The notes beneath the pieces are model-generated. The model saw only the letters and a program-made list of their open reading frames with translations, had not been told where the DNA came from and made no database searches. Below, piece by piece: positions 4,857 through 63,937 of a stretch of DNA of 64,000 bases; the stretch's first letter is position 1; every line of letters starts with the position of its first letter. The position numbers and the translations under genes are program-made. The stretch covers positions 248,001 through 312,000 of the forward strand of contig JAJFFH010000027.1 of NCBI GenBank assembly GCA_021776735.1, given 5' to 3'. Source of the DNA: Planctomycetota bacterium. GTDB taxonomy: Bacteria > Planctomycetota > PLA2.

Positions 4857-4874
4857 GCGTACGGACGGCGATGT
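4857..4874 (+). repeat. Dispersed 18-bp motif, copy 1
   Basis: GCGTACGGACGGCGATGT, full consensus of the dispersed motif described in the findings. It lies in the 272-bp gap between the ECF sigma gene and the secreted repeat protein, 39 bp beyond the stop of the latter. Confidence 0.9.
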
Positions 4875-4912
4875 CTGCGCGCTGGCGCCGGAACATCGGC
4901 AGCCCCTGCGCG

Positions 4913-6103
4913 TTAGCGCTGGAAGATCGGCAGGTAGTTCGTCGGAACCTGCAGGATGATCGCCGAGACCGCGGTCGAGAACGCGTTGCCGACGTGGCTG
5001 GAGACCCAGTACGTGTGGCGGCGTCCGTCGCGGCGCGTGCGCGACCGGGCGATCGACAGGAGGTCGTCGCGGACCATCGTGTACCAGTTTTCCCACGTCC
5101 GTCCGCCGCGCGTGTACATCGCCTGCGCGGCGTAGTAGTTGCCGTAGAAGTAGAAGTAGTGGTCGTGGTACTCGATCCAGATGCCCTCGTACTGGCGCTG
5201 GATGTAGCGGAGGCAATCGCTGATGCGCGGCGGCCGCGGAATGCTGTGCTTACGGCAGAAGCGGGCGACCGCGGTGTTCGAGTACAGCCCGGCCTGGTAG
5301 ATGGTCGTCAGTCCGGCGGCGGTCAGGGCGAAGCTGTTTCGGTTGAACGGAACCTTTTGATGCTGGTAGAGGAACGCGCCCCGGTCGTGGCCGGTCGTGA
5401 CCGCGGACTCCATGACGTAGCGCAGCGCCTTGTCGATGGACTCCTTGGGCACCTTGATGCCGATGTTTCTCGCCTCACGCAGTGCGACCACCTGGCAGAC
5501 GGTGATCGACATGTCGGAGTCCTGGGCGGCGGGTGCATAGCGCCATCCACCGCGCGTGTTCTGGGACTTCCAGGTGAACGCGACCGCCTGGTCCAGTTTC
5601 CCGCGCAGCGCCGGGTTGCCCGTCATGCCGTAGATTTCGGCGAGGAACAGGACGCTGAACGCATGGCTGTACATGCGCGTTCCGTGTTCGGTGATAAACC
5701 CGTCCGGCTTCACGGAGCGCAGGACAAAGCGCAGCGCTTTGTCCATGACCTTGCCGTACGGGCCCTGGCCGGGCAGATGGCCTCCGCTGAGGAAGGCCAT
5801 GCCGGCGAGTGCGGTGACGCCCAAGTGGGGCCGGCCCTCGCGCGGCTGCGTCTCGGGCTGGGGCCGGTAGCCGTCGTTGATCTTGAAACCGACGCGCGAG
5901 GTCCACGATCCGTCCTTGTTTTGATGGTCGGCGAGCCAGCGCAACGCCCCGTCGACGGCCTTCTTGGCGCGGTCGTTCAAGAGCGGCTTCTTGCGCCGTG
6001 TGGCGCGCAGGTCTTCCTGGGCCAGCACGGGGGCGGGGGCAGCGGCACCAAGTCCTAGAACCAAGCCGGCTGCGAGAAGAACGGTTGCGAAGCGACGGTG
6101 CAT
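4913..6103 (-). CDS. Secreted prenyltransferase/squalene-oxidase-repeat protein
   Basis: 396 residues. I chose the ATG at 6103 because it begins a signal peptide (MHRRFATVLLAAGLVLGLGA, cleavage near VLAQ). The mature part has alpha/alpha-toroid repeats typical of the prenyltransferase and squalene-oxidase repeat family: ALRWLADHQNKDGSW, LRFVLRSVKPDGFI, AVAFTWKSQNTRGGWRYAP, CLRYIQRQYEGIW. The DxDD catalytic motif of true cyclases is absent, and export argues against sterol or hopanoid synthesis. Such secreted repeat proteins are common in planctomycetes and their role is unknown. A related protein is encoded at 19853-21049. It is flanked by gaps on both sides, so probably monocistronic. Confidence 0.8.
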   Translation of the reverse strand: MHRRFATVLLAAGLVLGLGAAAPAPVLAQEDLRATRRKKPLLNDRAKKAVDGALRWLADHQNKDGSWTSRVGFKINDGYRPQPETQPREGRPHLGVTALAGMAFLSGGHLPGQGPYGKVMDKALRFVLRSVKPDGFITEHGTRMYSHAFSVLFLAEIYGMTGNPALRGKLDQAVAFTWKSQNTRGGWRYAPAAQDSDMSITVCQVVALREARNIGIKVPKESIDKALRYVMESAVTTGHDRGAFLYQHQKVPFNRNSFALTAAGLTTIYQAGLYSNTAVARFCRKHSIPRPPRISDCLRYIQRQYEGIWIEYHDHYFYFYGNYYAAQAMYTRGGRTWENWYTMVRDDLLSIARSRTRRDGRRHTYWVSSHVGNAFSTAVSAIILQVPTNYLPIFQR

Positions 6104-6245
6104 TCGGTCTCCGTCAAGTATACGTCGGAAGCGGGACCTCGAAGACACGAGGCTCGAATTTTGAGGTCGCCCTCGCCATCCGTGATCATCGGCGGGGTAG
6201 GGCCGGACCGTGAGCCTGCCCTCCCGACCGATGACCCAAACGGGG

Positions 6246-10768: not shown

Positions 10769-10798
10769 ACGGACGGCGATGTAGACATCGCCGTCCGT
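10769..10798 (-). terminator. Terminator built from a head-to-head pair of the dispersed motif
   Basis: Two copies of the motif meet as a perfect 14-bp inverted repeat (10769-10782 and 10785-10798) separated by 2 bases. On the minus strand the hairpin is followed after ACGC by six T residues (complement of 10759-10764). It lies 50 bp beyond the stop codon of the VWA gene at 10849, so it reads as a Rho-independent terminator of the MoxR-BatA-VWA operon. Confidence 0.85.
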
Positions 10799-10848: not shown

Positions 10849-13350
10849 TCAAAGCAGAAGATGCAGACGCCGCAGGATCCACTCGGCAGCGAGCAGGCCG
10901 ACGAACAGCCACAGGATCCACGCCCGGTCCCACAGGTCGGTTCGCTGCGGCTCGCCCGAGCGCACGACGCCGGTCGAGCGGACGACCTTGTCGGAGAGCA
11001 GCCGGTCGAGCTCCCACGGCATGAGCAGCGTGCCGCGGCTCCGGTCGGCGATGCCGCGCAGGGTCTTGATGTCCATGAGCGGTTCCTGGCTCTCGATCGT
11101 CGTGTCCTCGATCGTAAACGTCGCCTCCGCGGGCTCCTCGTCGTCGACCTCGGCGATCAGGCGATAGGTGCCCGGTTGAATCGCCGGGAGAACGGTCTTG
11201 AACAGGCCCTTCGGTGGGTCGTTGATCACGGCGTGGACGGGGACTTCGTCTTCCTTGCCGTCCGGGTGGCGCAGCTTGAGCGTGCGGGTCATCGTCGACG
11301 AATCGGCCTCGTCGGGCGCGACCGGCTCGAAGTCGCGATCGAGGAACTTCACTTCGACACCGATCGACTCGCCGACCTGGTAGCGCGCATTCGCGCGATC
11401 GACCCAGATTTTCACGCGGCGGTTTCCACTCAGCAGCCGGTAGGTGGCGAGGTGACGGATCGCGTTTGCCCAAAACCTCCAGTACAGCTTGTTCTCCACC
11501 CCCATGCGCATGCGCCACAGCTCGTCGGTCGCGAGCCACAGCACCTTGCCCGCGCCGTAGTCCTGCAGGGCGATGATCGGGTCCGCGCGCTTGGTTGTAC
11601 CGCTGGGACCCTGGCGCTCCGCCAGAACCTGCGCCGTTGACTTGGCGCGCTGCACGGGTGCAAACAGGCAGTAGGTGAAGCGCTCGTCCTCTTCCCACAT
11701 CTCGCGTGTCTGTTCGACGTCGGTCGTGATGCGAAGGATGGCGTGCGTCGCGCCCGCCGCGGTCAGGTGGTAGCGCTTCTTGTGGCCCGGATCGACGATG
11801 CTCAGGCGCGGCTCGTGGCGCAGGGCCCGGTACGGCACGACCGGCAGCAGCGCCATCATGGGGGTGCCCGTGTACGCATCGTGATCGGGGACGTTGGCGT
11901 CGCGCCCGGCGTGCAGCACGAGGCCACCGCCCGATTTCACCCACTCCTCGATGAGTCCGAGGATCTTCACGCGGCGGCTGGCATCTTCCGCAAACATCTT
12001 CCGCGTCGGGTTGACGTCGTGGAGGATGATGACGTCGTACTCGGCCAGCTCGCGCTTGGTGGCGGGAAACGTGCGCAGCCGCTCGCGACCCTTGGTCGAG
12101 GGCTGGGGCCAGTCCGGCACTGCGCTGAGCAGCAGCATCTGCGCGTCGATAATGCCCTCGGCGCGTTGCAGCGCCACGTTCAGCCAGCGGTACGTGTACG
12201 AAGGTCCGTTCGCGACGAACAGGACGCGCATGCGCAGCTTGACGATGCGCAGCCGATGCGTTCGGTAGTTGTCGGAGTGGACCGCTTCGTCCTCCTCGGG
12301 CGGCACGCCGATCTGGAGGTGGTACCGTCCCGGTTCTTCGAAGCGGCGCCGGAAGGTGACCTCGACCGGCTCTTCCTCGTCCCCGGGAAGGGAGAAGGAC
12401 TCGGCGTCGATCGACAGCTCTTCTGTCCGCGTTCCTTTCGAGTCGATGAGCCAGGCCTCGAGCGCCGCGAGGCGACCCTTGAGCCCGCTGGCGCGCACGG
12501 TCACCGTGAACGCGACCTCGTCGCCGGCCAGAGCAACCTCGGGCGCATCAATGCGCTGGACGGCGATGTTGATGGCCGCCGACGGGTCGCCGATCGCCAC
12601 GGGAAAGATCGGAATACCCTCCGCGGTCTGTTCGGCCGCGTACTGGGCCTCCTGGAGCGGGTGGGGCGCGCCACCGGTGTGGCGACCGTCCGAGAACAGC
12701 ACGATGCCGGCGACCGGCTCGTTCTTGCGCTCGAAACGCGTCACGAGATGGCGCAGCGACAGACCGATTCGCGTGACAGGGCCCTTTGCCTTGAGGCCGG
12801 AGAACGCGGTGTTGAGTCGCTCGGCCGCCGTTTCCGGATTCTCGTCGGGCAGGGGATCGAAACGTCCGACCGGGCCGCGGTCGAACGAGTACAGGTGCAG
12901 CCGGAACTTCTCGGCGAGGTTCGCGAGCAGGTCGGGCTTGGCCGCGACCAGACGCTTTACGATCTCAAGGCGGCGCGCCTGGGACAGATTGGCCTGCGGA
13001 AACTTGCATGCCTTGGCCACCCGCGCGGCGAGCCTTGCATCGGGGTACCGGTCCCGGTTCCCCATGGACTGGGACGTATCGACCAGCAGGATGAGATGGC
13101 GCTTGTAGTACTCGCCTTGAACCGTTTCGGTGTACGGTCCGAACAGCGCGCCGATCGCAAGCAGGATCGCAAGGATGCGCAACACGCCCATGGCCATGCG
13201 CGGCACGCGCCCGACGGCGCCGGCCTCGCGGCGATACAGGAATCGGACGGTCAGGGCGACGGCCGGAATCAGCACGAGAACGACAACCCACGCGGGCGGC
13301 ATCGCGTGCCAGCGGAGCGAGGTCGAGGCGGCGGCGGTGATGGGCATCAC
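10849..13350 (-). CDS. VWA-domain membrane protein with glutamine-amidotransferase-like domain
   Basis: 833 residues. Two hydrophobic helices near the N-terminus (about 20-38 and 53-72) are followed by a von Willebrand A domain whose MIDAS motif DTSQS begins at residue 91, with the second metal site around FSDGR. A central segment (DVIILHDVNP, GGGLVLHAGR) resembles class I amidotransferase-like folds without an obvious catalytic triad. A last membrane helix lies near the C-terminus (WILWLFVGLLAAEWIL). It starts with GTG (13350) or the adjacent ATG (13347), overlapping the upstream stop as GTGA. It is the fourth gene of the MoxR cluster and probably part of a periplasm-facing assembly complex. 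Confidence 0.85.
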   Translation of the reverse strand: MMPITAAASTSLRWHAMPPAWVVVLVLIPAVALTVRFLYRREAGAVGRVPRMAMGVLRILAILLAIGALFGPYTETVQGEYYKRHLILLVDTSQSMGNRDRYPDARLAARVAKACKFPQANLSQARRLEIVKRLVAAKPDLLANLAEKFRLHLYSFDRGPVGRFDPLPDENPETAAERLNTAFSGLKAKGPVTRIGLSLRHLVTRFERKNEPVAGIVLFSDGRHTGGAPHPLQEAQYAAEQTAEGIPIFPVAIGDPSAAINIAVQRIDAPEVALAGDEVAFTVTVRASGLKGRLAALEAWLIDSKGTRTEELSIDAESFSLPGDEEEPVEVTFRRRFEEPGRYHLQIGVPPEEDEAVHSDNYRTHRLRIVKLRMRVLFVANGPSYTYRWLNVALQRAEGIIDAQMLLLSAVPDWPQPSTKGRERLRTFPATKRELAEYDVIILHDVNPTRKMFAEDASRRVKILGLIEEWVKSGGGLVLHAGRDANVPDHDAYTGTPMMALLPVVPYRALRHEPRLSIVDPGHKKRYHLTAAGATHAILRITTDVEQTREMWEEDERFTYCLFAPVQRAKSTAQVLAERQGPSGTTKRADPIIALQDYGAGKVLWLATDELWRMRMGVENKLYWRFWANAIRHLATYRLLSGNRRVKIWVDRANARYQVGESIGVEVKFLDRDFEPVAPDEADSSTMTRTLKLRHPDGKEDEVPVHAVINDPPKGLFKTVLPAIQPGTYRLIAEVDDEEPAEATFTIEDTTIESQEPLMDIKTLRGIADRSRGTLLMPWELDRLLSDKVVRSTGVVRSGEPQRTDLWDRAWILWLFVGLLAAEWILRRLHLLL

Positions 13351-17561: not shown

Positions 17562-17573
17562 GGGAAGCCGCTG

Positions 17574-17579: not shown

Positions 17580-17618
17580 AGGCCGTTTCCCGACGCGCGC
17601 GGGAAGTGGAATGAAAGG

Positions 17619-21219: not shown

Positions 21220-21237
21220 ACATCGCCGTCCGTACGC
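21220..21237 (-). repeat. Dispersed 18-bp motif, copy in convergent gap
   Basis: Full consensus (GCGTACGGACGGCGATGT on the minus strand), 17 bp beyond the stop codon of the FtsB-like gene and in the 204-bp gap between convergent genes. Confidence 0.9.
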
Positions 21238-25659: not shown

Positions 25660-25675
25660 GCGTACGGACGGCGAT
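25660..25675 (+). repeat. Dispersed motif between panC and panD
   Basis: GCGTACGGACGGCGAT begins 5 bases after the panC stop codon, in the 65-bp gap before panD. The 3' GT of the consensus is replaced by TC. Confidence 0.9.
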
Positions 25676-27341: not shown

Positions 27342-28572
27342 CGTCATCCAGACGCTGGTTCAGCCCGGCGACCGGATCGATCGGCGCGTCGATCGCGTCG
27401 AGCTGCGCCTCGACCTGTACCCCGACCTCGACGCCGCGGCGTTCATCAAGCGCTGCAGGAAACCCGTCGTCGCCTGCGTGCGTCGTGTGCGCGATGGCGG
27501 GTCGTTTTCGGGTGCCGAATCCGAGCGCGTTGCGTTGCTCGAGCGCGCGGCAGGCGCGGCGTATCTGGATCTGGAGGTGGACGCGGACTTCGAGCCGGAC
27601 GACGACTTTCAGCGGTTGGTGAGTTTTCACGACTGCGCCGCGATGCCGCACGACCTGGACGGGATCTTTGAGCGCTGTCTCGGTCGCGGCGCGGACGTGG
27701 TCAAGATCGTCGCGACGCCGCGCGATTCCACCGAGGCTTTTCGCCTGCTCGACCTGCCGGTGCCGGGCCTGGGACTTGGCGACGCCGGAGCGTTCACCCG
27801 TTTCCTGGCCCCGCTGACGTATTGCGCCCGCGAGCCCATCGCGCCCGGAATACCGACGCCCGAGGAGCTGTTCGACGAGGTCGGCCTGCGCCGGCTCGGC
27901 GACAAGCCCGCGCTGTACGGCGTGGCAGGTCGCCCGATCGCCCACTCGCAAAGCCCCAAGCTCCACAACGCCGCGTTCGCCGCGGCGGGTCGGGATGCCG
28001 CGTACCTGCGCTTTGACACCGACGACCTGCCGTCGTTTTGGCGCGCCTTTTTGGCCCACAACGGCCACGGGCTGTCCATCACCTCGCCGCTCAAGGAACA
28101 GGCAGCCGCACTGGCCACGGCGCCGGACGACGTGGTCAAGGCTTGTGGCGCGGCCAACACGCTGCTTGCGGACGGGCGCGCCTTCAACACCGACTACCAC
28201 GCGTTTCTCGAACTGGTGCCGCCCGCGAAGGGTGAGTCGCAAGCGTTGGTCATGGGGGCCGGGGGGGCTGCGCGCGCGGCAATCCTGGCGCTCAAGGAGT
28301 TGGGTTACGCGGTGTCGATCTGGAACCGGACGCCGGCACGGGTTGCGGCCCTGCGACGCACCCCCGCGTTGCAAGACATCGCCGTCCGTACGCTCTTGCA
28401 GCCGGGTTCTCCCGATCCCGCCGCCGTGGTGATCAACACGACGCCGCGCGAGCCGCCCGCGGCGCGGTTCGTCCTGGATTTGCGCTATGGGCCCGGCCAC
28501 GACGCGGGGCTTGCGTTCCTGGATGCGCAGGCGCGTCGGCAGATCGAGCTGTTTGCCGTCGATGTCGAGTGA
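27325..28572 (+). CDS. Bifunctional 3-dehydroquinate dehydratase / shikimate dehydrogenase
   Basis: 415 residues from ATG at 27325, overlapping spoVG by 17 bp. Residues 1 to about 190 are a type I dehydroquinase: VDRVELRLDLYP, catalytic His in SFHD, Schiff-base Lys in GADVVKIVATP and the PIAPGIPTPEEL end. Residues from about 195 are an AroE domain: YGVAGRPIAHSQSPKLHNAAF, catalytic Lys in SPLKEQ, Asp in FNTDYHAF and the NADP loop GAGGAARAA. The two reactions are successive steps of the shikimate pathway, as in plant DHQ-SDH fusions. The dispersed motif interrupts the AroE domain as DIAVRTL. Shikimate kinase follows. Confidence 0.95.
   Translation: MRLTRNVIQTLVQPGDRIDRRVDRVELRLDLYPDLDAAAFIKRCRKPVVACVRRVRDGGSFSGAESERVALLERAAGAAYLDLEVDADFEPDDDFQRLVSFHDCAAMPHDLDGIFERCLGRGADVVKIVATPRDSTEAFRLLDLPVPGLGLGDAGAFTRFLAPLTYCAREPIAPGIPTPEELFDEVGLRRLGDKPALYGVAGRPIAHSQSPKLHNAAFAAAGRDAAYLRFDTDDLPSFWRAFLAHNGHGLSITSPLKEQAAALATAPDDVVKACGAANTLLADGRAFNTDYHAFLELVPPAKGESQALVMGAGGAARAAILALKELGYAVSIWNRTPARVAALRRTPALQDIAVRTLLQPGSPDPAAVVINTTPREPPAARFVLDLRYGPGHDAGLAFLDAQARRQIELFAVDVE
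28376..28393 (-). repeat. Dispersed 18-bp motif inside the aroE domain
   Basis: Full consensus on the minus strand, read in the gene as part of QDIAVRTLLQ. It falls in a surface-type loop region between conserved blocks of the shikimate dehydrogenase domain. Confidence 0.9.
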
Positions 28573-31408: not shown

Positions 31409-31424
31409 CGTACGGACGGCGATA
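31408..31424 (+). repeat. Dispersed motif fused to a stop codon
   Basis: GCGTACGGACGGCGATA; its first G is the last base of the TAG stop of the HEAT-repeat gene. The TAGCGTACGG arrangement recurs at 35513 and 63916. Confidence 0.9.
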
Positions 31425-34734: not shown

Positions 34735-35499
34735 TCAATCGGGAAGTGGCGTCTTGTCCCGCATCTCCGGGAGCGGCGGAGCCAGGTCGCGAAAGCGGAT
34801 GTCTTTGACGTTCGACTGGATCAAACGGCTGACGACCGCGATGACATGCTTGTAGGCGACGTCGGGCGCCGCGTCGATCTCGATTTGCTGTCCTTGTAGC
34901 CCGCGGGAGAGGTGTTCGAGGCGCACTCGTTTTCCGTCTACGGCACAGACCAGACCGTTGTCTGTGGCCCACAGGCGAATCCGTGTTGGAGTGCCCTCGG
35001 GCACCGACGTGGGCAAAAACACCGTCAGCTTGTTTCCCCAGTGGCCACTGGGCTCCCGCCGCCGGACACCGAACAGGAGTTTGTAGTACCCCTGCTCGTG
35101 GAACACTCCGAGAATCCAGCGGACGTGGCGCCAAGGAGTGTTCTCGTCCGCGTCGAGCCGAACGAAGAGTTTGCTCCACCTCCTGTTGTTCCGGGTCACC
35201 CAGCCCGCGCCTGTCTTCTTGGAATTGTAGTTCTCGGCATAGCGCGATATGCGTGCCGCGAGTCCGGCCAAGGTGACGACCTTCCCTGCGTGAATCCGAC
35301 CGCTCCTGTCGAGGTCCACGCCGACCCGGTCGTGGGGCTCGTCGCCCTTGTCGGGCTCTGCGGCGGCAGCGACAGGCAGGGTAAAGCCTGTCGGATCCGA
35401 CGCGCCCGGATCGGGTTCGTTGGACTCGCAGCCGACGAGGCTGCCGACAATGCTCCCCAGCAGCGCCGCGCATCGAACAAGACGACGTGCGGCAGACAT
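34735..35499 (-). CDS. Lipoprotein with ExbD/TolR-like periplasmic domain
   Basis: 254 residues from ATG at 35499, which begins a lipoprotein signal (MSAARRLVRCAALLGSIVGS, Cys in SLVGC). The C-terminal 90 residues resemble the periplasmic domain of ExbD/TolR: KLTVFLPTS, GLVCAVDGKRV, IEIDAAPDVAYKHVIAVVSR and VKDIRFRDL. The usual membrane helix with its essential Asp is missing. The middle part (about 75-150) resembles no known domain. The start codon lies inside a copy of the dispersed motif, which fills the whole gap to the upstream stop. It may associate with a TonB/Tol-type motor, but no such genes are in view. Confidence 0.65.
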   Translation of the reverse strand: MSAARRLVRCAALLGSIVGSLVGCESNEPDPGASDPTGFTLPVAAAAEPDKGDEPHDRVGVDLDRSGRIHAGKVVTLAGLAARISRYAENYNSKKTGAGWVTRNNRRWSKLFVRLDADENTPWRHVRWILGVFHEQGYYKLLFGVRRREPSGHWGNKLTVFLPTSVPEGTPTRIRLWATDNGLVCAVDGKRVRLEHLSRGLQGQQIEIDAAPDVAYKHVIAVVSRLIQSNVKDIRFRDLAPPLPEMRDKTPLPD

Positions 35500-35513
35500 C
35501 GCCGTCCGTACGC
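35496..35513 (-). repeat. Dispersed 18-bp motif that supplies a start codon
   Basis: Read on the minus strand: stop TAG of the aminopeptidase gene, then CGTACGGACGGCG, then ATG of the lipoprotein gene. The motif is the entire intergenic spacer. Confidence 0.92.
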
Positions 35514-38140: not shown

Positions 38141-38155
38141 AACGGACGGCGATGT
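38141..38155 (+). repeat. Dispersed motif in a divergent promoter region
   Basis: AACGGACGGCGATGT, in the 200-bp gap between divergent genes starting at 38030 and 38231. One of few copies upstream of both neighbours. Confidence 0.85.
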
Positions 38156-40775: not shown

Positions 40776-40832
40776 ATATCGCCGTCCGTTCCTGCCGGCC
40801 GAACATCGACGTAAACGAACGGACGGCGATGT
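40776..40832. terminator. Bidirectional hairpin from an inverted motif pair
   Basis: Two GGAAC/GAAC-type copies of the dispersed motif face each other: 14-bp perfect arms at 40778-40791 and 40817-40830 with a 25-base loop. It lies between the ends of convergent genes (lysS at 40758 and the CAP-like gene at 40948). No T tract, but the symmetrical position fits a shared terminator. Confidence 0.65.
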
Positions 40833-42910: not shown

Positions 42911-42926
42911 GCGTACGGACGGCGAT
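42911..42926 (+). repeat. Dispersed motif abutting the recJ stop codon
   Basis: GCGTACGGACGGCGAT is immediately adjacent to the TTA (stop TAA) of recJ at 42927-42929. Confidence 0.9.
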
Positions 42927-44687
42927 TTACTGTGCGCGGTGGCTCGGCGCAATCTCGCGGACGTGGAGTTCTACTTTTTCTCGGCCCATTCGGGGGCGGC
43001 GTAGGACGAAGGCGATATCGAAAGGTTCCTGCAAGAGTTCTTCGTGGTCGGCCTGGTTGTAGGCGATGGCGCGGACCGAGGCGCGGCGGGAGGCGGCGAA
43101 AAACGAGAGGTGGCGGCTCTGGTTGCCGGTGCGGCGCGTGCGGCCGGCGGCGCGGACGCCGTAGGCGCAAAACAGCGGCTCGGGGTTCGCTGAGCCGAAA
43201 GGGCGTAGCGACTCGATCTCGGCGGCAAGCGGAGCAGAGATGGCGTCGATCGGTAGTTCCGCGTCGACTTCACGCGGTCCTTGTTCGTTCGCGCCCTGGG
43301 CGCGGACGGCATCCTGAAACGCCGTCCGAAATGCATCGACGCGGTCGGCCTGCATCGTGAAGCCCGCCGCCTTTGCGTGGCCGCCGTGCGACGTGAGCAG
43401 GTCCGAGCATTCCGCAAGCGCTTCGTGCAGGCGGACCCGCCCGAAGCAGCGCGCGGAGCCGCGGGCCTCTCCGCCCTCGACCGACAAGATGGCAGCCGGG
43501 CGGCGGTACGTTTCGGTGATCCGCGCCGCGACGATGCCGATGATGCCGGCGTGCCAGCCTTCGCCGCCGAGCACATAGGCGGCAACATCGCCGTCCGTCT
43601 GCTTTTCTTGCTCTTGGATCCTGTCCGCCTGCTCGAACGCCGTTTCGGTCAGCGCGCGCTCGAGTTCCTGCCGCTTCAGGTTGCCCTCCTCCAGTTGTTG
43701 GGCGAGCTTCTCGGCGCGCTGGGGATCGTCGCAGAGCAAGAGATCGAGGGCCAGGTCCGCGGAGCCGAGGCGACCGGCCGCGTTGAGGCGCGGTCCGAGC
43801 CGGTAACCGATGTCGTGGGCGCGCACCGGGCGGCCGTCGCACCGGGCAGTTTTTTTCAGCGCGAGCAGACCCGCGTGGCGCGTGGCGGACAAGGCGCCCA
43901 GGCCGAGGGCGACCAGGCTGCGGTTTTCGTCCACGAGCGGCATGACGTCGGCGACGGTGCCGATGGCCACGAGAGCGAGCAGGTCCGGCAGCAGCGCGCG
44001 AAAGGCCGCGTCGTTCTCTTTGTGCAACCGCTCGACGAGGGCACAGCCGGTTTTGAAGGCGACCCCACAGCCGGCGAGGCCCGTGAACGGGTAGGTGCGG
44101 TCGGCGCGCTTGGGGTTGACGACCGGGCACGGCGGCAGCGTCTCGCCCGGCTCGTGGTGGTCGGTGACCACGAACTGCAGGCCCGCTTCCTGGGCGCGGG
44201 CGATTTCGTCGGCGCGGCTGGTGCCGTTATCGACCGTGACGACCAGGCCGCAGCCCTCTTCGCGCAGCCGGTCGAGTGCCGAGCGGCTCAGTCCGAAGCC
44301 GTCATCGAGGCGATGCGGGATGAAGGGTCGCACGTCGGCGTTGAGGAGCCGCAGAATGCGGGTCATGATTGTCGTGGAGCTGACGCCGTCCACGTCGTAA
44401 TCGCCGTAAACCGCGATCCGCGTGCCGGCGCGGACGGCTTCCAGAAGGGCATCCACGGCACGGTCCATGTCGCGAAACAGGCGCGGATCGTGGAGGTGAT
44501 CGGGGCCCGGCTGCAGGAAGCGGCGGCCGGCGGGCGCATCCGTCACGCCGCGGGCGACGAGGATCTGCGCGGTGACCGGGTGAATCCCGAGATCCCGCGA
44601 CAGGCGGGCGGCGTCGTCCGGATCGATGTCGCGCGGGCGAAAGGCGTCGTGCAAGGCGGAACTCCCACAGGCCCCAAAACCGACCAT
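42927..44687 (-). CDS. recJ: Single-stranded-DNA-specific exonuclease RecJ
   Basis: 586 residues from ATG at 44687. DHH-phosphoesterase motifs in order: AVYGDYDVDGVSSTTIM (motif I), VVTVDNGTS (II), VVTDHHEPG (III, DHH), NPKRADRTYPF, AIGTVADVMPL (IV), GPRLNAAGRL, and the DHHA1 part GWHAGIIGIVAARI and GGHAKAAGFTM. It degrades single-stranded DNA 5' to 3' in recombination and repair. A copy of the dispersed motif is inserted in frame between the two lobes, encoding KQTDGDVAAY. Directly upstream of its start is a perfect tandem repeat of 16 bp. Confidence 0.96.
   Translation of the reverse strand: MVGFGACGSSALHDAFRPRDIDPDDAARLSRDLGIHPVTAQILVARGVTDAPAGRRFLQPGPDHLHDPRLFRDMDRAVDALLEAVRAGTRIAVYGDYDVDGVSSTTIMTRILRLLNADVRPFIPHRLDDGFGLSRSALDRLREEGCGLVVTVDNGTSRADEIARAQEAGLQFVVTDHHEPGETLPPCPVVNPKRADRTYPFTGLAGCGVAFKTGCALVERLHKENDAAFRALLPDLLALVAIGTVADVMPLVDENRSLVALGLGALSATRHAGLLALKKTARCDGRPVRAHDIGYRLGPRLNAAGRLGSADLALDLLLCDDPQRAEKLAQQLEEGNLKRQELERALTETAFEQADRIQEQEKQTDGDVAAYVLGGEGWHAGIIGIVAARITETYRRPAAILSVEGGEARGSARCFGRVRLHEALAECSDLLTSHGGHAKAAGFTMQADRVDAFRTAFQDAVRAQGANEQGPREVDAELPIDAISAPLAAEIESLRPFGSANPEPLFCAYGVRAAGRTRRTGNQSRHLSFFAASRRASVRAIAYNQADHEELLQEPFDIAFVLRRPRMGREKVELHVREIAPSHRAQ
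43585..43602 (-). repeat. Dispersed motif inside recJ
   Basis: GCAGACGGACGGCGATGT on the minus strand, read in frame by recJ as KQTDGDV between its two lobes. Confidence 0.88.
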
Positions 44688-46327: not shown

Positions 46328-46344
46328 CAGACGGACGGCGATGC
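46328..46344 (+). repeat. Dispersed motif after the pentapeptide gene
   Basis: GCAGACGGACGGCGATG, 14 bp after the stop codon at 46314; GTAG precedes it, as at other gene ends. Confidence 0.88.
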
Positions 46345-49988: not shown

Positions 49989-51584
49989 ATGCGAAAAAGC
50001 ATCGCCGTCCTTGGCTTTCTCACGCTGCTGGCGACCGTGGGTGGGGCCGACAACGACAAGAAATACAGCCGGCTCATGGCGCAGGCGCGGGCGCTTGAGC
50101 TGGATCGGACCCTGCCAACGATCGAAGTTCGCCTGAACCGGGCGCGCGACAAGTTCATCGAGGCGGCCCGGCAGTGCCCCGCGCGTTGGGAAGCGTTCTT
50201 TGAGCTGGGCGTGAACCGGTGCAAACGCGCATTCTGGATGCATGGCGAGGCCCAGGACCACATTACGCTTTCGCGGGCGCGCGGTCTCGCACCCGCGCGG
50301 CTCACGGCCATGGAGGTCGGCGCGAAGGCGCAGATAGAAACTGAACTCGCGGAGACCTATCGCTGGTTCAAGAACGGGTTCGAGCGGCAGGAGCGGCTGT
50401 ATGGCGAACGAGACCAGCAGCTAGTCCGCGTCGCGAACGCGTTTACGAAATTTGCGGCGCGTGAGTACCTCCGCGCGAAGCAGGGCCGGCCCGGTGCGAT
50501 CGCGGACTTCCAGGCGCTCTTGCGCTCGCAGTACAACGAAACCCTGTGCCGCAACCACATCGCGATGTGTTACCTCGACCTCGGAGTCGAGGCTTACGGG
50601 GAGCAGGACTACAAGAAGGCGCAGGACTGGTGGGACAAGGCGCTGCGCTGGGCCAAAGCGTCCTGGCTGCGCCGGATGATCTACTCGAACAAGGCGGGGG
50701 CGTACGAGCTCGACAGCGAGTTCGCGCTCGCGGAAAAGCTGCTCCAAAAGCAGATCGCCGAGGAGCCGGGCAGTCCGGTGCATCACAAGAACCTGGGGCT
50801 CGTTGCGGGGTTCCAGAACCGGCTGCCGGAGGCCGCGTACTACTATCGAAAAGCCCGCGAGCTGTGCGCGCGCGATCCAAACCGGCGGTTGGCATTTTTT
50901 CACGGCAACGCGTGGCTGCGGGCGGCGGAGATCCACGGCCACCTGCTGGAGCGTAACGGCGATGTCCTCCTTGCCTGGCGGCTGTTCATGGAGTACCGCG
51001 CGCGGCACGGCGACAACTACAACTTCGCGATCGCGTTCGGCCGGTTTGCGTCGATCAACCGCCGCTACAGCCTCGCGTGGCGCTTCTTTCAGCATGCCGC
51101 CAAGCTGCAGCCGCATTGCACGGTGCCGTTTCTCGAACTGATCCGGATCGCGCCGCGTGTCGGCAAGACCCGCGAGGAGGCCGACCAGCTCAGCGCCGAC
51201 ACGAAAGAACGCCTCGAGAAGGTGCAGGCGCGCTACGCAGGAACGGACGAGCCGCACGATGTCGCGCGCGTCTGCGCAGGCCTGCGCGATGATCCGCGCC
51301 TCCGCTCGAGCCCGAAAAACCTGGCCATGGAAGGCGACGATCCGTTCGCGGAACTGTCGGCGGACAAGCCGCCGGCGTGGGTCCAAAAGATCACGGAGGA
51401 GCGCGAGCCTTACGAGCCGTGGACGCCCGGGAAAGCACGGACGGGCACAAAACAGACCACAGGAACGGACGGCGATGTCGCTACGGAGACCGATCGTTCG
51501 AGGCTCTGGTTGCTTGCGGGCGTGTTAGGTGCCGCGGTCATTCTCGTGGGCATCCTGTTTGCGAACAGAGCAGCGGCAGCGTGA
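49989..51584 (+). CDS. TPR protein with C-terminal membrane anchor
   Basis: 531 residues from ATG at 49989. An N-terminal signal-like helix (SIAVLGFLTLLATVGGA) is followed by TPR-like helices (CYLDLGVEAYGEQDYKKAQD, HHKNLGLVAGFQNRLPEAAY) and a C-terminal membrane helix (LWLLAGVLGAAVILVGILF). Two copies of the dispersed motif are inside the gene, one in the signal peptide (SIAVLGF) and one just before the membrane helix (GTDGDVATE). Its stop overlaps the next gene as GTGA. Confidence 0.75.
   Translation: MRKSIAVLGFLTLLATVGGADNDKKYSRLMAQARALELDRTLPTIEVRLNRARDKFIEAARQCPARWEAFFELGVNRCKRAFWMHGEAQDHITLSRARGLAPARLTAMEVGAKAQIETELAETYRWFKNGFERQERLYGERDQQLVRVANAFTKFAAREYLRAKQGRPGAIADFQALLRSQYNETLCRNHIAMCYLDLGVEAYGEQDYKKAQDWWDKALRWAKASWLRRMIYSNKAGAYELDSEFALAEKLLQKQIAEEPGSPVHHKNLGLVAGFQNRLPEAAYYYRKARELCARDPNRRLAFFHGNAWLRAAEIHGHLLERNGDVLLAWRLFMEYRARHGDNYNFAIAFGRFASINRRYSLAWRFFQHAAKLQPHCTVPFLELIRIAPRVGKTREEADQLSADTKERLEKVQARYAGTDEPHDVARVCAGLRDDPRLRSSPKNLAMEGDDPFAELSADKPPAWVQKITEEREPYEPWTPGKARTGTKQTTGTDGDVATETDRSRLWLLAGVLGAAVILVGILFANRAAAA
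50000..50012 (-). repeat. Dispersed motif core in a signal-peptide region
   Basis: Exact 10-base core (50001-50010) on the minus strand with a diverged 5' flank; codes for IAVL in the TPR protein. Confidence 0.7.
51462..51478 (+). repeat. Dispersed motif inside the TPR gene
   Basis: GGAACGGACGGCGATGT, in frame as GTDGDV, in the low-complexity linker before the C-terminal membrane helix. Confidence 0.88.
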
Positions 51585-54874: not shown

Positions 54875-55948
54875 CTTTTTTGGCTGTGCTTGGCAGCGCC
54901 TGGAGGCGAGAGAGTCGATTTCGGCAAATCGACGGCGCGTCGGGTTCGACTGCTGCGTCACCAGAATCCGCGCGTGCGCCGGCACGCGGCCCTGCTGCTG
55001 GCGCATGCGGAGCCGGACCGGGCCATCGCGGGGCTGCTCGTTGCGTTGCGTGATCCGCATCCCGGTGTGCGCCGCGTCGTCGCCACCGTGCTGGCGGAGT
55101 ACGGGGACAAGCGCGCCGTGCCGTTTTTGGCGCGACAGGTGCGAGTCGAAAAATCGCCGTCCGTTCTGGCCGCCGCGCTGCTCGCGCTGGCGCGCTGTGG
55201 CAAGGAGTATGTCGCGCGCCACGTGCTGCCGTTCTTGGAGCATCCGGTGCGCGGGGTCCGCGTTGCCGCCGCGGCGGCTCTCGGCAATCTGGGGGATGCC
55301 GGGCAACGGGATGCGCTTTGGGACGCCCTGCGCTACGCGCCGGATGATCCGCAGTTCGAGATGCGCTCCGCCGTGCTCGATGCGTTCGTCCGCCTTTCGT
55401 GGAAAAAGGACGTGGCCCGGGCGATCGACGAGTTGCTGGAGGCGGGGGCGGCGCGGCACTGGCGGTCGCGAGCCATGGTTCTGGCGGCGATCGGGAGCAG
55501 CGGGCTGAACGGTCGCGTGGATTACGTGCGCGCGGAGTTGGCGCGGCGGGAGGATCCGCGGGTGGTCGCGGCCGCTGCCGAGGCGCTGGCCCGGCTTGGT
55601 CACCGGAACGAGGTCTTGGGATTGTTGGAGCACGAGGCGGCGATCGTGCGCCGCTCGGCACTCGTCGCTCTGCAGGAGGCCGGCGATTCACGCGTCATCG
55701 ACAAGGCGGCGGCCATGGTTCTGGCGGATGCTGACCGTCACGTACGTTTCGAGGCGACCCTGGTGCTTCACCGGGCGAAGGACCCGCGCGCGAACGGTTT
55801 CTTGATCGATGCGCTGCGGTCACGCAATCCGCTGTTCTGGATTACCGCGCTCGGCGCCCTCGAACAGCGCCATCGCCGCTCGTTTGGCCGCGACCCCGAC
55901 GCCTGGTCCGCGTATCTCCGGCGTCGCCAGCAGAAGCGTCAGAGTTGA
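54857..55948 (+). CDS. HEAT/PBS-lyase-repeat protein, secreted
   Basis: 363 residues from ATG at 54857 (MLATAMLFWLCLAAPGG, signal peptide) with GGGGG just upstream. HEAT repeats throughout: RLLRHQNPRVRRHAALLLAH, ALRDPHPGVRRVVATVLAEY, FLEHPVRGVRVAAAAALGNL, LEHEAAIVRRSALVALQEAG. One motif copy lies in the third repeat, encoding KSPSVLAA. A binding or scaffold role is likely; no catalytic residues. Confidence 0.82.
   Translation: MLATAMLFWLCLAAPGGERVDFGKSTARRVRLLRHQNPRVRRHAALLLAHAEPDRAIAGLLVALRDPHPGVRRVVATVLAEYGDKRAVPFLARQVRVEKSPSVLAAALLALARCGKEYVARHVLPFLEHPVRGVRVAAAAALGNLGDAGQRDALWDALRYAPDDPQFEMRSAVLDAFVRLSWKKDVARAIDELLEAGAARHWRSRAMVLAAIGSSGLNGRVDYVRAELARREDPRVVAAAAEALARLGHRNEVLGLLEHEAAIVRRSALVALQEAGDSRVIDKAAAMVLADADRHVRFEATLVLHRAKDPRANGFLIDALRSRNPLFWITALGALEQRHRRSFGRDPDAWSAYLRRRQQKRQS
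55151..55167 (-). repeat. Dispersed motif inside the HEAT gene
   Basis: Minus-strand AGAACGGACGGCGATTT; codes for KSPSVL in the HEAT protein, a third reading frame of the motif. Confidence 0.82.
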
Positions 55949-56679: not shown

Positions 56680-58844
56680 ACGTACGCACACGTCTTTTCC
56701 TCGCGACGATCGGTCTGCTCGTGGCCGGCTCGGTCGCGTACGCGTTCTTGGTCTCCAACTCGCGCGTCGGAACGCGGTTCGTGTTCGAGCAGCTTCCGGC
56801 CAACCGGCGGCCGGCGAACGTCCTCGTCGATACGGACGCCGTCCCGGGCGTTGCAAGCCCGCTCGCGGTCGTCCAGGACCTGATGAACCAGTGGAACACG
56901 GTTCCCGAGGCCGAGGCGGTCTTCGGCGACGCGCTGGTCGGTGGCCCCTACAACGGCACGACGGTCGGAAGTACGTTCGGCACGTTTACCAACAGCCAGT
57001 TCGAGGTGGCGTTTGACGAGACCGGCGACGTCCTGTCGTTTTTCGGCATCGGGCAGGGCGTGCTCGGGATCACGCTGAAGAGCGTGACGCCTAGCAACGG
57101 CAACCTGCTGGACTTTTTGGTCGTGATCAACACGCGCCCCGGCGCGCTGACCGCCCCTGGCTCGGGTGCGACCACCGAACAGCTCTTTCGCGCCACGCTG
57201 CTCCACGAATTGGGCCACGCGGCCGGCCTGGGCCACACGCCGACCGGTATCGTCAACCCGTCCACGTTCGGCTTCAGCCAGGCGGGCCCGAGCGTGATGC
57301 CGACCATGTTCGCCTTCCGGCTCCCGATTCGGCCGCAGGAAGGCGGCAGTCTGGAAGCCGACGACGCGGCGGGCCTGACCGAGATCTATCCGGCGGACAC
57401 CTCGGGGCTTGGCGCGATCACGGGCACAGTGCGCGGCGTCGGCGCCGCCGGCGTGAACGAAGTCGTGGTGCGCGCCCTCGGGCCGGACGGCTCCGCAGAA
57501 TTGGGCCACGTCAGCGTCCTCACGAATGCGAACGCCACGGGGCTCGGCGAATACCGCATCCCGCATCTCCCGCCGGGCCGTTACCGCGTCATCCTGGAGA
57601 CGATCAACGGGCGTGGCAGCGTGATGGCTGCCACACTGGCAGGAACGGACGGCGATGCCTTGGGTGGCATGCCCTTTCAGGACGCGCCCGACGAGCACTA
57701 CCAGCCTGGCGATACCTACCCGGCGACTGCCGACAACCCGACTGTTTTTTCGCTCGTGACCGTGCGCGCCGGGCGGGACACGAACGGGATCGACTTCGTG
57801 CTCAACGCCGAGGTTCTGGCCGAAGGCGCAAGCGCGGGCGCCTTGGTCGGGGGCGACACGCGTGTCGGTGACGCTGCCGGCGGATTTCACTTCGCTGACT
57901 TCTACGTCTTTTCCGCCGCGGCCGGAGCCAACCTGGCGATTGCGGCCACCGGTATCGGGCCGACGGCACAGCTCCGGCTTTGGGCACCCGATGTTTCGAT
58001 GATTGCCGAAAACACGCCGGTGTTCAATCCGGCGCAGATCAACGTGACGGCTCCGCAGACCGGAATCTACCGGCTGACGGTGTTTGCCCGCGCGACCACC
58101 GGCAATCCCTCGTCGACGGGCAACTACAACCTCACGCTGGCCGGATCGTCCGGCGCTGTGCCCCCGACGCCCGTGTTGATGCCGGCCATGGCCGCAGCCG
58201 GATCGGGAAATCCCGGGGCGCAGCAGTTCGGTAACCCGCTGGTCCGCCTGCCGGTTCTTCAGGTTGGAGTGAGTGCACCCAGCCACGAGTCGCTTTGGGT
58301 CGATCAGCTCACGGTGAATGTCTCCGGCTCGGCGAACGATGTCACCGACATCACGGCCGTGCGCTTGTTTCACGACCTCGATGACGACGGTGTCGTGGAC
58401 GGCGGGGAACCCCAGTTGGGACTCGAGACGTTCGTTGCCGACAACGGCCGAATCGACTTCGGGTTGTCCCTGGAGGTTGCCGCAGGCGAAACGGCGAACC
58501 TGCTGGTCGCCATCGACGCGACCGTGGTTTCGGTGGCACCGGCGGGTGCGGGCTCCTGGATTCTGCTGCCGCTCCTGGGCTTGCTGTTTTGGGTGGTTCG
58601 CCCGCGCCGGCTGCGGCGGGCGACGGTGTTGCTCCTGCTGGCGACGCTCGTGCTTCCGATGTCGTGCGGTGGCGGGGGCGGCGGCGCCAACGGACCGTTC
58701 GATCCGACGCGGCCCGCGGTGTCGTTTCAATTCAGAACACCAGCGGGCGGTATCGCCGCGGCCACGCCGACCAGTGATCCGGCCGCGCCGCCGGTCCTTC
58801 CGGCGGCCGACGTGGTATCCGGCCAACTAATGGTGTCGAGCTGA
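56676..58844 (+). CDS. Matrixin-like zinc metalloprotease with a C-terminal anchor
   Basis: 722 residues, ATG start overlapping the upstream stop. A signal anchor (RLFLATIGLLVAGSVAYAFL) leads to a matrixin-like domain with the zinc-binding HELGHAAGLGHT (about residue 180) and a Met-turn-like VMPTMF. A carboxypeptidase-regulatory-like Ig domain (GAITGTVRGVGAAGVNEVVV) and a bacterial pre-peptidase-type domain follow. The C-terminus has a membrane helix (GSWILLPLLGLLFWVV) with RPRR, and then a second hydrophobic stretch ending in MSCGGGGGG that looks like a lipoprotein lipobox in an internal position. Likely an envelope-bound protease. Confidence 0.85.
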   Translation: MNVRTRLFLATIGLLVAGSVAYAFLVSNSRVGTRFVFEQLPANRRPANVLVDTDAVPGVASPLAVVQDLMNQWNTVPEAEAVFGDALVGGPYNGTTVGSTFGTFTNSQFEVAFDETGDVLSFFGIGQGVLGITLKSVTPSNGNLLDFLVVINTRPGALTAPGSGATTEQLFRATLLHELGHAAGLGHTPTGIVNPSTFGFSQAGPSVMPTMFAFRLPIRPQEGGSLEADDAAGLTEIYPADTSGLGAITGTVRGVGAAGVNEVVVRALGPDGSAELGHVSVLTNANATGLGEYRIPHLPPGRYRVILETINGRGSVMAATLAGTDGDALGGMPFQDAPDEHYQPGDTYPATADNPTVFSLVTVRAGRDTNGIDFVLNAEVLAEGASAGALVGGDTRVGDAAGGFHFADFYVFSAAAGANLAIAATGIGPTAQLRLWAPDVSMIAENTPVFNPAQINVTAPQTGIYRLTVFARATTGNPSSTGNYNLTLAGSSGAVPPTPVLMPAMAAAGSGNPGAQQFGNPLVRLPVLQVGVSAPSHESLWVDQLTVNVSGSANDVTDITAVRLFHDLDDDGVVDGGEPQLGLETFVADNGRIDFGLSLEVAAGETANLLVAIDATVVSVAPAGAGSWILLPLLGLLFWVVRPRRLRRATVLLLLATLVLPMSCGGGGGGANGPFDPTRPAVSFQFRTPAGGIAAATPTSDPAAPPVLPAADVVSGQLMVSS
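57642..57658 (+). repeat. Dispersed motif inside the matrixin gene
   Basis: GGAACGGACGGCGATGC, in frame as GTDGDA in the Ig-like domain. Confidence 0.86.
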
Positions 58845-61443: not shown

Positions 61444-61445
61444 CG

Positions 61446-63134: not shown

Positions 63135-63136
63135 GC

Positions 63137-63898
63137 ATGGAAACCGGAGCAGGAACAGACATCATCGAGCAGCTTCTCCGGCTCCGCGAGATCGATCACA
63201 AGCGGGGCCGGCTCAAGAAGAAGCTGGATGCCGTCCCGAAGAAACTGCGCCGGTTCACCGACGCCCTGGACGCGTTTGATTGCGCCGTGGAAGAACAAGA
63301 GCAGGTCAAGCTGGCCGCGCAGGCCGAAGCGCGCCGTGCCGAGCTCGAGGTCGCGACCCACGAGGAGCAGCGCGACAAGATCAAGCTCCAGATGAACGCG
63401 CCCAAGCTGTCCAACCGGGACTACGAGGTTCTCCAGACCGGGCTTTCGAGCGTTCTCGCGGACATCAACTCCCTTACGACGGCGGCCGTCAAGTCGATGG
63501 GGCGAGCGGAAGAGGCCGAAAAAAAGGCCAAGGAAGTCCGCGACGAGGCCGACGCGCTCCGCAAGGAGTACGAAGAGGAGCTTGCGCGGCTCAACGGTTC
63601 GCTCTCCGGCGTGCGCGACCAGCTTGGCGAACTCAACGCCCAGCGCGACATTTTCATGAAGGAGGACCAGGTCATCACGATCGAGGCCCTCGACATCTAC
63701 GAGAGAATCCGCGCCAAACTCGGAGACGCCTTGGCCGCCGTCGATGGCACGATCGACCGCGCCGGCAACCGAATCGGCAACGACCTGCACTGCTCGGCGT
63801 GCTACATCACGATCACCCCGAATGACGCGGTCCAGGTCATCGAGGGCCAAAGGCTCATCCAGTGCAAGTCGTGCGTGCGCATCCTGTACGTTCCGTAA
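63137..63898 (+). CDS. C4-type zinc-ribbon protein with coiled coil (CdsZ-like)
   Basis: 253 residues from ATG at 63137; a TTG at 63131 overlapping the rpoD stop is possible. A long antiparallel coiled coil (about 8-195) ends in a zinc ribbon with CSAC and CKSC (about 217-245). This matches the C4 zinc-ribbon family that in actinobacteria and chlamydiae is implicated in ribosome or type III-associated functions. Its position after rpoD is common. A copy of the dispersed motif follows the stop after about 20 bp. Confidence 0.9.
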   Translation: METGAGTDIIEQLLRLREIDHKRGRLKKKLDAVPKKLRRFTDALDAFDCAVEEQEQVKLAAQAEARRAELEVATHEEQRDKIKLQMNAPKLSNRDYEVLQTGLSSVLADINSLTTAAVKSMGRAEEAEKKAKEVRDEADALRKEYEEELARLNGSLSGVRDQLGELNAQRDIFMKEDQVITIEALDIYERIRAKLGDALAAVDGTIDRAGNRIGNDLHCSACYITITPNDAVQVIEGQRLIQCKSCVRILYVP

Positions 63899-63917
63899 CG
63901 GATAAGCGGCAGCAGTA

Positions 63918-63937
63918 GCGTACGGACGGCGATGTAG
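63918..63937 (+). repeat. Dispersed motif, last copy
   Basis: GCGTACGGACGGCGATGTAG, preceded by AGTA, 20 bp after the zinc-ribbon gene. The last 60 bases of the window show nothing further. Confidence 0.9.

What the first reader, a model, noticed from the sequence alone, without database searches (positions are those of the whole stretch)
4857..63937. Highly iterated oriented motif, a candidate DNA uptake or genome-marking sequence
By hand I count 22 exact copies of GGACGGCGAT on both strands: plus-strand cores begin at 4863, 10771, 12558, 25666, 31414, 38144, 40821, 42917, 46333, 47647, 51467, 57647, 63924; minus-strand cores begin at 10787, 21222, 28378, 33804, 35498, 40778, 43587, 50001, 55153. 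A specific 10-mer should occur less than once in 64 kb even allowing for high GC (my rough estimate). Nearly all copies share AC before the core and G(T) after it, and two extended classes are seen: GCGTACGGACGGCGATGT and GGAACGGACGGCGATG. About 14 of the 22 lie in the small non-coding fraction, chiefly just after stop codons, two as terminator-like inverted pairs; eight lie in frame within genes. Known DNA uptake sequences (Neisseria DUS, Haemophilus USS) show the same density, orientation mix, pairing into terminators and in-frame tolerated copies. Alternatives are HIP1-like methyl marks, a REP-type element or a global regulator site.
Basis: partly seen in the sequence, partly recalled or inferred. 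Interest (0 to 1): 0.95.

Follow-up and report, generated by a model that had tools for sequence, protein, structure and literature searches.

The report
DNA uptake-like mark in a planctomycete
The genome of a likely planctomycete carries about 2,000 exact copies of one 10-base DNA word on both strands, likely a self-recognition tag used when cells take up DNA, which would be the first such tag outside two families of Proteobacteria.

Summary
It is not local: the 5.97-Mb genome holds 2,022 copies (1,003/1,019 by strand) against 6 for the reversed letters; ACGGACGGCGATG occurs 1,202 times here and at most 5 times in each of 391 other genomes of the phylum. The phylum, Planctomycetota, is judged from names of homologues.

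Copies are strand-neutral, five-fold denser in non-coding DNA, densest between convergent genes, some in inverted hairpin pairs, and keep one consensus inside and outside genes. Of nine in-gene copies compared with relatives, seven align without a gap. Representation falls steeply with one mismatch, as published for Haemophilus and Neisseria uptake sequences. ComEC, DprA, PilT-family, secretin and prepilin genes are present. A sister genus carries a different strict word, GGGGCTCCGGGG.

Best explanation: a convergent DNA uptake sequence. Uptake and receptor are unproven. KOPS/Chi, REP/RAYT, HIP1 and promoter-site readings fit worse; a chromosome-organiser site is the main rival.

The parts
4863..4872 (+). 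core copy, intergenic, upstream class AGCGTAC
10771..10780 (+). core copy, left arm of inverted pair, intergenic
10787..10796 (-). core copy, right arm of inverted pair; RNA hairpin -30.5 kcal/mol, z -7.0
12558..12567 (+). core copy inside a VWA/GATase1-like gene (10849-13347 -), antisense, without AC before it
21222..21231 (-). core copy, intergenic, class AGCGTAC
25666..25675 (+). core copy, 10 bp after a stop codon, class AGCGTAC
28378..28387 (-). core copy inside an aroD-aroE fusion gene (27325-28572 +), antisense
31414..31423 (+). core copy, 5 bp after a stop codon, class AGCGTAC
33804..33813 (-). core copy, intergenic between divergent genes, class CAGGAAC
35498..35507 (-). core copy between genes (2 bp overlap with one), class AGCGTAC
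38144..38153 (+). core copy, intergenic between divergent genes, class AGCAAAC
40778..40787 (-). core copy, arm of a -/+ inverted pair between convergent genes
40821..40830 (+). core copy, other arm of that pair; hairpin -48.2 kcal/mol, z -7.0
42917..42926 (+). core copy, intergenic, touching the stop end of recJ
43587..43596 (-). core copy inside recJ (42927-44654 -), sense, in the DGD frame
46333..46342 (+). core copy, 18 bp after a stop codon
47647..47656 (+). core copy inside gene 46434-47819 +, sense, in an unusual frame
50001..50010 (-). core copy inside gene 49989-51584 +, antisense, class AAGCCAA
51467..51476 (+). core copy inside gene 49989-51584 +, sense, class CAGGAAC
55153..55162 (-). 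core copy inside a HEAT-repeat gene (54974-55948 +), antisense
57647..57656 (+). core copy inside gene 56676-58844 +, encoding TDGD; closest homologue has GAGE at the same length
63924..63933 (+). core copy, 25 bp after a stop codon, between convergent genes, class AGCGTAC

Best explanation
The word GGACGGCGAT, inside a looser motif of about 28 bases, stands 2,022 times on both strands of this genome and likely works as a DNA uptake sequence, a mark by which a predicted type IV pilus and ComEC competence machine would prefer DNA of its own kind. Shown here: the genome-wide, strand-neutral, sequence-strict repetition; enrichment between genes and after stop codons; inverted hairpin pairs; in-gene copies that, in seven of nine cases compared, align without a gap; and the presence of comEC, dprA, PilT-family, secretin and prepilin genes. 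Inferred: a surface protein (perhaps a minor pilin) binds the core strictly and its flanks loosely; DNA with the word is taken up and recombined more often; this biased exchange restores mutated copies and fixes new ones, so the word builds up wherever the sequence tolerates it. Inverted pairs were probably secondarily used as transcription terminators. It is a functional analogue of the Neisseria and Haemophilus uptake sequences with an unrelated core, so not a member of either family.
For: 2,022 copies, 1,003/1,019 by strand, reversed control 3/3. 13-mer 1,202 here, at most 5 in each of 391 other genomes of the phylum. In 1,249,027 bp analysed: 423 sites, 306-396 per Mb on each of four contigs, 37% of sites in the 10.4% non-coding; 1.99 per kb between convergent genes against 0.66 per kb between divergent genes. 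The same extended consensus (purine-rich before, pyrimidine-rich after) in non-coding, sense and antisense copies. Of 291 Asp-Gly-Asp codings 167 are GACGGCGAT, 33 expected from codon usage, so the word and not the peptide is favoured. Representation, (obs-exp)/exp from the counts, falls 94-fold from 0 to 1 mismatch for ACGGACGGCGAT, 55-fold for the 13-mer and 38-fold for the 10-mer; published falls are 92-fold (H. influenzae, 9-mer) and 82-fold (N. gonorrhoeae, 10-mer). 29 of 36 neighbours closer than 300 bp are inverted; the four inverted pairs that I folded beat all 200 shuffles each. Window copy at 57647: homologue P0002 (71% identical) has GAGE at the same length; 6 of 8 full-length in-gene copies align to relatives without a gap. 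Upstream and downstream flanks are nearly uncorrelated across the core, so the copies are not pieces of one longer element. ComEC, DprA, HHH_3 matches, one in a small ComEA-like frame, PilT family, PilM and four prepilins in a row, secretins. Two genomes of a sister genus share another strict, strand-neutral word, GGGGCTCCGGGG: 50 copies in 355,518 bp, 1.2 expected, reversed 0, the three close pairs all inverted.
Against: No uptake data exist. Relatives have DprA (14 of 17 genomes, own included), HHH_3 (15 of 17) and PilT family (17 of 17) without this word; ComEC and secretins were searched in the own genome only. The other word in the sister genus has no clear letter likeness to this one, unlike the published dialects, and no such oriented word was seen in the other relatives sampled. 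No GspH/FimT-type pilin was found in this genome and no receptor is identified. No enrichment in conserved genes: 0.22 copies per kb against 0.24. 2 of 8 aligned in-gene copies fall where the relative has a gap (random footprints 20 of 400), and several of the other six are locally poor alignments. At equal length (10-mer) the fall with one mismatch is shallower than published (38 against 82). Upstream flanks come in a few discrete, internally correlated forms, which a simple additive binding site does not predict.
Confidence: 0.6

Rival explanations
1. A binding site for an abundant chromosome-organising or other DNA-binding protein, kept by selection at many places, without any role in uptake.
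For: Copies occur on the six contigs examined at length at 306-468 per Mb, are strand-neutral and have a strict core with looser flanks. Relatives with similar pilus genes lack the word. Merged spacing departs from exponential (KS p 0.004); CV 0.92, P 0.064.
Against: Copies tolerate genes in both directions (268 of 423), are fewest between divergent genes and pair up as hairpins. About 2,000 strict sites would need selection at each site separately, while biased uptake gives the same result by drive (inference).
Confidence: 0.2
2. Remains of a short mobile or REP-like element copied around by a Y1 transposase (RAYT) or similar enzyme.
For: Seven Y1_Tnp matches in this genome, one with oppositely oriented copies on both sides at 417 and 911 bp; a few discrete upstream forms; inverted pairs; 2 of 8 in-gene copies opposite a gap.
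Against: The word is not palindromic; the other six Y1 matches have their nearest copy 655 to 8,155 bp away, four of them with one side cut by a contig end; flanks are rarely shared beyond 12 bases upstream and correlate little across the core (mean z 0.11 non-coding, 0.24 coding, a few pairs up to 5.7); 6 of 8 in-gene copies, and the window copy at 57647, align without a gap.
Confidence: 0.08
3. A strand-oriented recombination or segregation signal of the Chi or KOPS type.
For: Highly repeated, oriented, non-palindromic word.
Against: 60 of 108 copies on the leading strand of the dnaA contig, of which only 3 lie right of dnaA (p 0.24 for the left arm); no correlation with GC skew (rho 0.14, p 0.28, 61 blocks). 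Longer and stricter than the known signals (recalled).
Confidence: 0.03
4. A transcription terminator or other RNA-level signal downstream of genes.
For: Enriched after stop codons and between convergent genes; pairs fold as hairpins; pyrimidines follow the core.
Against: Most copies are single and the two single copies folded are not unusual (z -1.2 and +1.5); copies sit in both directions inside genes. At most a secondary use of pairs.
Confidence: 0.06
5. A HIP1-like or restriction-modification mark read by a methylase.
For: Over-represented strict word in one lineage.
Against: Not palindromic and longer than usual methylase sites (recalled); non-coding enrichment and pairing are unexplained. 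No methylase was looked for.
Confidence: 0.03

Closest known systems
DNA uptake sequences (DUS) of Neisseriaceae, read by the minor pilin ComP
   Same: 10-12-base strict word in very many copies on both strands, in and between genes, inverted pairs as likely terminators (PMC3630211, PMC12616744, PMC13020248), steep mismatch profile, type IV pilus, ComEC and DprA genes present.
   Different: Unrelated core (no CTG); another phylum; 339 copies per Mb, lower than in Neisseria (recalled); no dialect with similar letters found; no ComP identified; uptake untested.
Uptake signal sequences (USS) of Pasteurellaceae
   Same: Strict core with looser flanks; steep fall in representation with one mismatch (PMC1939737).
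   Different: No GCGG core; GC-rich word; receptor and uptake unknown here.
HIP1 of cyanobacteria (recalled)
   Same: Very frequent strict word of debated role in one lineage.
   Different: HIP1 is palindromic; this word is oriented and pairs into hairpins.
REP/RAYT elements (recalled)
   Same: Intergenic, after stop codons, inverted pairs.
   Different: No palindrome in the single unit, no consistent link to Y1 transposases, most compared in-gene copies align without a gap.

Membership tests
DUS/USS as a functional kind | Hundreds to thousands of copies of a 9-12-base word, far above chance | tested here: met
   2,022 copies against 6 reversed; 1,202 of the 13-mer against at most 5 in each of 391 others
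DUS/USS as a functional kind | Both orientations, no replication-strand bias | tested here: met
   1,003/1,019; 60 of 108 leading on the dnaA contig
DUS/USS as a functional kind | Over-representation falls steeply with mismatches | tested here: met
   94-fold (12-mer), 55-fold (13-mer), 38-fold (10-mer) from 0 to 1 mismatch against published 92 (9-mer) and 82 (10-mer)
DUS/USS as a functional kind | Inverted pairs that can form terminator hairpins | tested here: met
   29 of 36 close neighbours inverted; hairpins in the four pairs folded; termination itself untested
DUS/USS as a functional kind | Copies arise by point mutation, not insertion | tested here: inconclusive
   window 57647 clean; 6 of 8 ungapped, 2 of 8 gapped, some poor local alignments
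DUS/USS as a functional kind | Competence and type IV pilus genes in the genome | tested here: met
   relatives share DprA, HHH_3 and PilT family without the word
DUS/USS as a functional kind | Specific receptor, a minor pilin | tested here: inconclusive
   four prepilins in one cluster; no GspH/FimT match
DUS/USS as a functional kind | Shared across a family as dialects | tested here: inconclusive
   58 relatives at background for this word; two genomes of a sister genus share a different strict word without clear likeness; no second genome of this genus came up
DUS/USS as a functional kind | Enrichment in core genes | tested here: inconclusive
   0.22 against 0.24 per kb; only 76 of 976 genes counted as conserved
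DUS/USS as a functional kind | Preferential uptake of DNA bearing the word | not testable with these tools
   needs an uptake assay
Neisseriaceae DUS | Inner core CTG | tested here: not met
   absent from GGACGGCGAT on either strand; core named in PMC12616744
Pasteurellaceae USS | Inner core GCGG | tested here: not met
   absent from GGACGGCGAT on either strand; core named in PMC12616744
REP/RAYT | Palindromic unit (recalled definition) | tested here: not met
   the single word is not palindromic
REP/RAYT | Copies next to the Y1 transposase gene (recalled definition) | tested here: inconclusive
   1 of 7 flanked on both sides at 417/911 bp; the two on C43 are 4.7 and 8.2 kb away; four at contig ends
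KOPS/Chi | Leading-strand bias | tested here: not met
HIP1 | Palindromic octamer (recalled) | tested here: not met
   the word is not palindromic

The most novel reading that the evidence does not exclude
A third, independent origin of DNA uptake codes, in Planctomycetota: natural transformation with self-recognition outside the Proteobacteria, in a family whose genera each fix their own word (here AGC, a 3-4-base spacer, then GGACGGCGATG; in a sister genus GGGGCTCCGGGG), read by an unknown receptor.
Probability: 0.5. Interest if true: 0.93.

Novelty: new variant of a known kind. Interest (0 to 1): 0.82.

Why it matters
[quoted passage not shown] A third, unrelated case in another phylum would show that such codes evolve repeatedly, give evidence for sex by transformation in planctomycetes, and offer a fresh receptor-word pair for asking how the receptor and thousands of copies change together. 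A sister genus with a different strict word would make that change traceable within one family.

Tried and rejected
Words in relatives: a count in 12 relatives (27-100 kb each, top six words per length shown) found no word like this one. It did show a G-rich word in G001, palindromes in G009 and G025. I first passed over the G001 word and followed it up only when checking this report: GGGGCTCCGGGG, 30 copies in 272,331 bp of G001 and 20 in 83,187 bp of G004, the same genus. A further word there (ACTCGATCGGGT, 8 and 10 copies) was not followed up. The apparent hit in G003 (CATCTGACGAT) proved to be short tandem arrays, strand-skewed, and was dropped as a dialect. One 20-kb stretch of G039 was used only in the alignment and conservation tests.

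Chance, restriction to this region, strand bias and a promoter role were tested and not supported. RAYT coupling was tested and is unlikely but not closed.

The inverted-pair pattern was scanned over the named GTDB genomes: one hit, in Xanthomonas maliensis, with records of this genome possibly left out. A 19-mer scan of viral contigs found nothing. The four-copy gene L002:3650-4849 had no homologue beyond itself among the 7,998 candidates scored; homologues of the HEAT-repeat gene were at most 35% identical over most of its length and were not used for the insertion test.

Core-gene enrichment: no difference. GspH/FimT receptor search: none in this genome. No structure was predicted: no candidate receptor stood out. 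No methylase search was made.

Literature: 'DNA uptake sequence' with Planctomycet* and 'uptake signal sequence' with Planctomycet* gave 0 papers; the 12-mer gave one paper, on a human deubiquitinase, seen as a listing; 'natural transformation' and competence with Planctomycet* gave 10 papers, listing only; 'uptake sequence' with metagenome-assembled and overrepresented gave 0; a general uptake-sequence search gave 22, 15 listed. These cover open-licence PMC papers only. Seen: PMC3630211 (passages and section 4), PMC12616744 (passages), PMC1939737 (passages and section 5), PMC13020248 (passages); all others as listings only.
Full report
OBSERVATION. All 22 listed copies of GGACGGCGAT are present at the stated places and strands; shuffles give 0.55 on average and 4 at most. 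Twenty have AC before the core and 16 have G after it. Eight lie in genes called by my simple caller and 14 between genes. Both close inverted pairs are real and fold as strong hairpins.

GENOME-WIDE. The window is part of contig C20 of a 5.97-Mb, 71-contig genome. The word occurs 1,003 times forward and 1,019 times reverse, its reversed letters 3 and 3 times. In the relatives set of 59 genomes (own included) the other 58 hold background numbers, the densest about 21 per Mb against 339 per Mb here. ACGGACGGCGATG occurs 1,202 times here and at most 5 times in each of 391 other genomes drawn from the phylum. The inverted-pair pattern gave one record among named GTDB genomes, Xanthomonas maliensis. 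Several homologues of a window protein are named Planctomycetota by their sources, hence the phylum.

ANATOMY. I analysed 1,249,027 bp on four contigs: 423 sites, 306-396 per Mb on each; 220 kb of two further contigs gave 468 per Mb. 155 sites are non-coding (37% of sites in 10.4% of the sequence). Density is 1.99 per kb between convergent genes, 1.07-1.39 between co-directional genes and 0.66 between divergent genes; in co-directional spaces 60 of 90 are nearer the upstream stop than the downstream start. The extended consensus is about gRnRAARCRnAC-GGACGGCGAT-GTYTYY, and the flanks look alike in non-coding, sense and antisense copies, which points to DNA, not RNA or protein. In genes the word prefers the frame giving Asp-Gly-Asp (136 of 155 sense copies) or Ile-Ala-Val (88 of 113 antisense copies). 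Of 291 Asp-Gly-Asp codings 167 use GACGGCGAT against 33 expected. Upstream heptamers come in a few discrete forms (AGCAAAC, AGCGTAC, CAGGAAC, AAGCCAA); their positions correlate with one another but little with the downstream side (mean cross-core z 0.11 in non-coding and 0.24 in coding copies, single pairs up to 5.7), and shared flanks rarely go beyond 12 bases upstream. Copies are therefore unlikely to be pieces of one longer element.

STRICTNESS. ACGGACGGCGATG has 234 exact copies against 0.5 expected in this part. Single mismatches at the inner positions (third to eleventh base) number 25 against about 7 expected; the base before GGACGGCGAT (52 copies with A) and the base after it (72 copies with another base) are loose, and T to G at the twelfth base occurs 10 times. 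Counted against base composition, ACGGACGGCGAT stands at 1,042 times expectation exact, 12 times with one mismatch and 2 times with two; 300 permuted 10-mers average 4.5 copies, 30 at most, against 423. As (obs-exp)/exp the fall from 0 to 1 mismatch is 94-fold for the 12-mer, 55-fold for the 13-mer and 38-fold for the 10-mer; a 2007 study reports 92-fold for H. influenzae and 82-fold for N. gonorrhoeae (PMC1939737, section 5). At equal length the fall here is shallower.

STRAND AND SPACING. dnaA and dnaN lie at C34 294.8-297.6 kb, where GC skew changes sign. Left of dnaA the copies split 46/59, right of it 1/2; 60 of 108 are on the leading strand. There is no correlation with GC skew (rho 0.14, p 0.28). 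Of 36 neighbours closer than 300 bp 29 are inverted (p 0.0003).

SUBSTITUTION OR INSERTION. At window 57647 this genome reads LAGTDGDAL and the closest homologue (71% identical) LAGGAGEAL, same length; most more distant homologues are one residue shorter there. Of 8 full-length in-gene copies alignable to relatives at 38% identity or more, 6 show no gap in the relative and 2 do; random footprints in the same alignments show gaps in 20 of 400. Several of the six are locally poor alignments. A looser set of 21 alignments at 27-62% identity is noisy and was not counted. So most in-gene copies that could be compared seem to have replaced existing codons; the sample is small.

MACHINERY. ComEC: one locus at C20:336697-337527, confirmed by Pfam and NCBIfam though under NCBIfam's full-length cut-off. 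DprA: one, with two copies of the word in its frame. HHH_3: two matches, one in a small ComEA-like frame. PilT family: 15 matches. Secretins: 7. C20 380-390 kb encodes a PilM-like protein and four prepilins in a row. Relatives share DprA, HHH_3 and PilT family, so these genes alone do not explain the word; ComEC and secretins were not searched in relatives. No GspH/FimT-type pilin was found here.

REP QUESTION. Seven Y1_Tnp matches: nearest copies at 417, 655, 790, 3,897, 4,149, 4,720 and 8,155 bp. One (C53) has an oppositely oriented copy on each side (417 and 911 bp); four lie at contig ends. This is near what scatter at one copy per 2.9 kb gives, and the word is not palindromic.

A SECOND WORD IN THE FAMILY. 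While checking I followed up a G-rich word in G001. GGGGCTCCGGGG has 30 copies in 272,331 bp of G001 (0.33 expected) and 20 in 83,187 bp of G004 (0.08 expected), two genomes of one genus in the same family as this genome. The shorter GGGGCTCCGG runs 24/16 and 12/9 by strand, reversed 4 and 0, and occurs once in 388 kb of this genome. Among GGGG-N4-GGGG words CTCC makes 30 of 71 and 20 of 33; mismatch counts over both are 50, 57, 310 against 1.2, 32, 363 expected; all three close neighbours are inverted. It looks like the same kind of thing with different letters, but it is G-rich, other G-run words are also raised there, and its gene context was not studied.

READING. A strict, strand-neutral, dispersed word that pairs into hairpins, is densest where sequence is free and shows a mismatch profile like that of known uptake sequences is best explained as a DNA uptake sequence that arose separately. 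Uptake, the receptor and the drive are inferred. Main weaknesses: no uptake data, no receptor, no dialect with similar letters, no core-gene enrichment, discrete upstream forms. The main rival is a chromosome-organising protein site.

NOVELTY. [quoted passage not shown] a 2026 terminator survey mentions uptake words in these two families (PMC13020248, passages). My searches found no planctomycete case (open-licence PMC only, listings).

Noticed in passing
G001 (L022-L026, L139-L149) and G004 (L150-L158): A different strict, strand-neutral, dispersed word, GGGGCTCCGGGG, 50 copies in 355,518 bp against 1.2 expected, with inverted close pairs; also ACTCGATCGGGT, 8 and 10 copies.
   Followed up: partly
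G003 (L032:7087-7190, 17535-17770) and G000 (C34:333756-333838, C45:140278-140372, C48:4-122): Short tandem arrays of AACATCTGACGATG, spaced about 28-36 bp, strand-skewed, 128 core copies in G003 and 37 in this genome; unexplained.
   Followed up: partly
L100, L101 (G025): A palindromic repeat GTCCCTACGGGAC, 12 word counts in 40 kb, REP-like.
   Followed up: no
upstream flank of the copies, in the 1.25 Mb analysed: Discrete upstream forms suggest a bipartite word with AGC at one of two spacings from the core.
   Followed up: partly
L017:14677-15888 +: A prepilin-like protein with a weak laminin-G-like lectin match next to three other prepilins.
   Followed up: no
G000:C43 (L112): An 11.9-kb contig with two Y1 transposase genes and one copy of the word, possibly foreign DNA.
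   Followed up: no
G000:C34:210955-232649: Longest stretch without the word in the 1.25 Mb analysed, 21.7 kb; its genes were listed but not annotated.
   Followed up: partly
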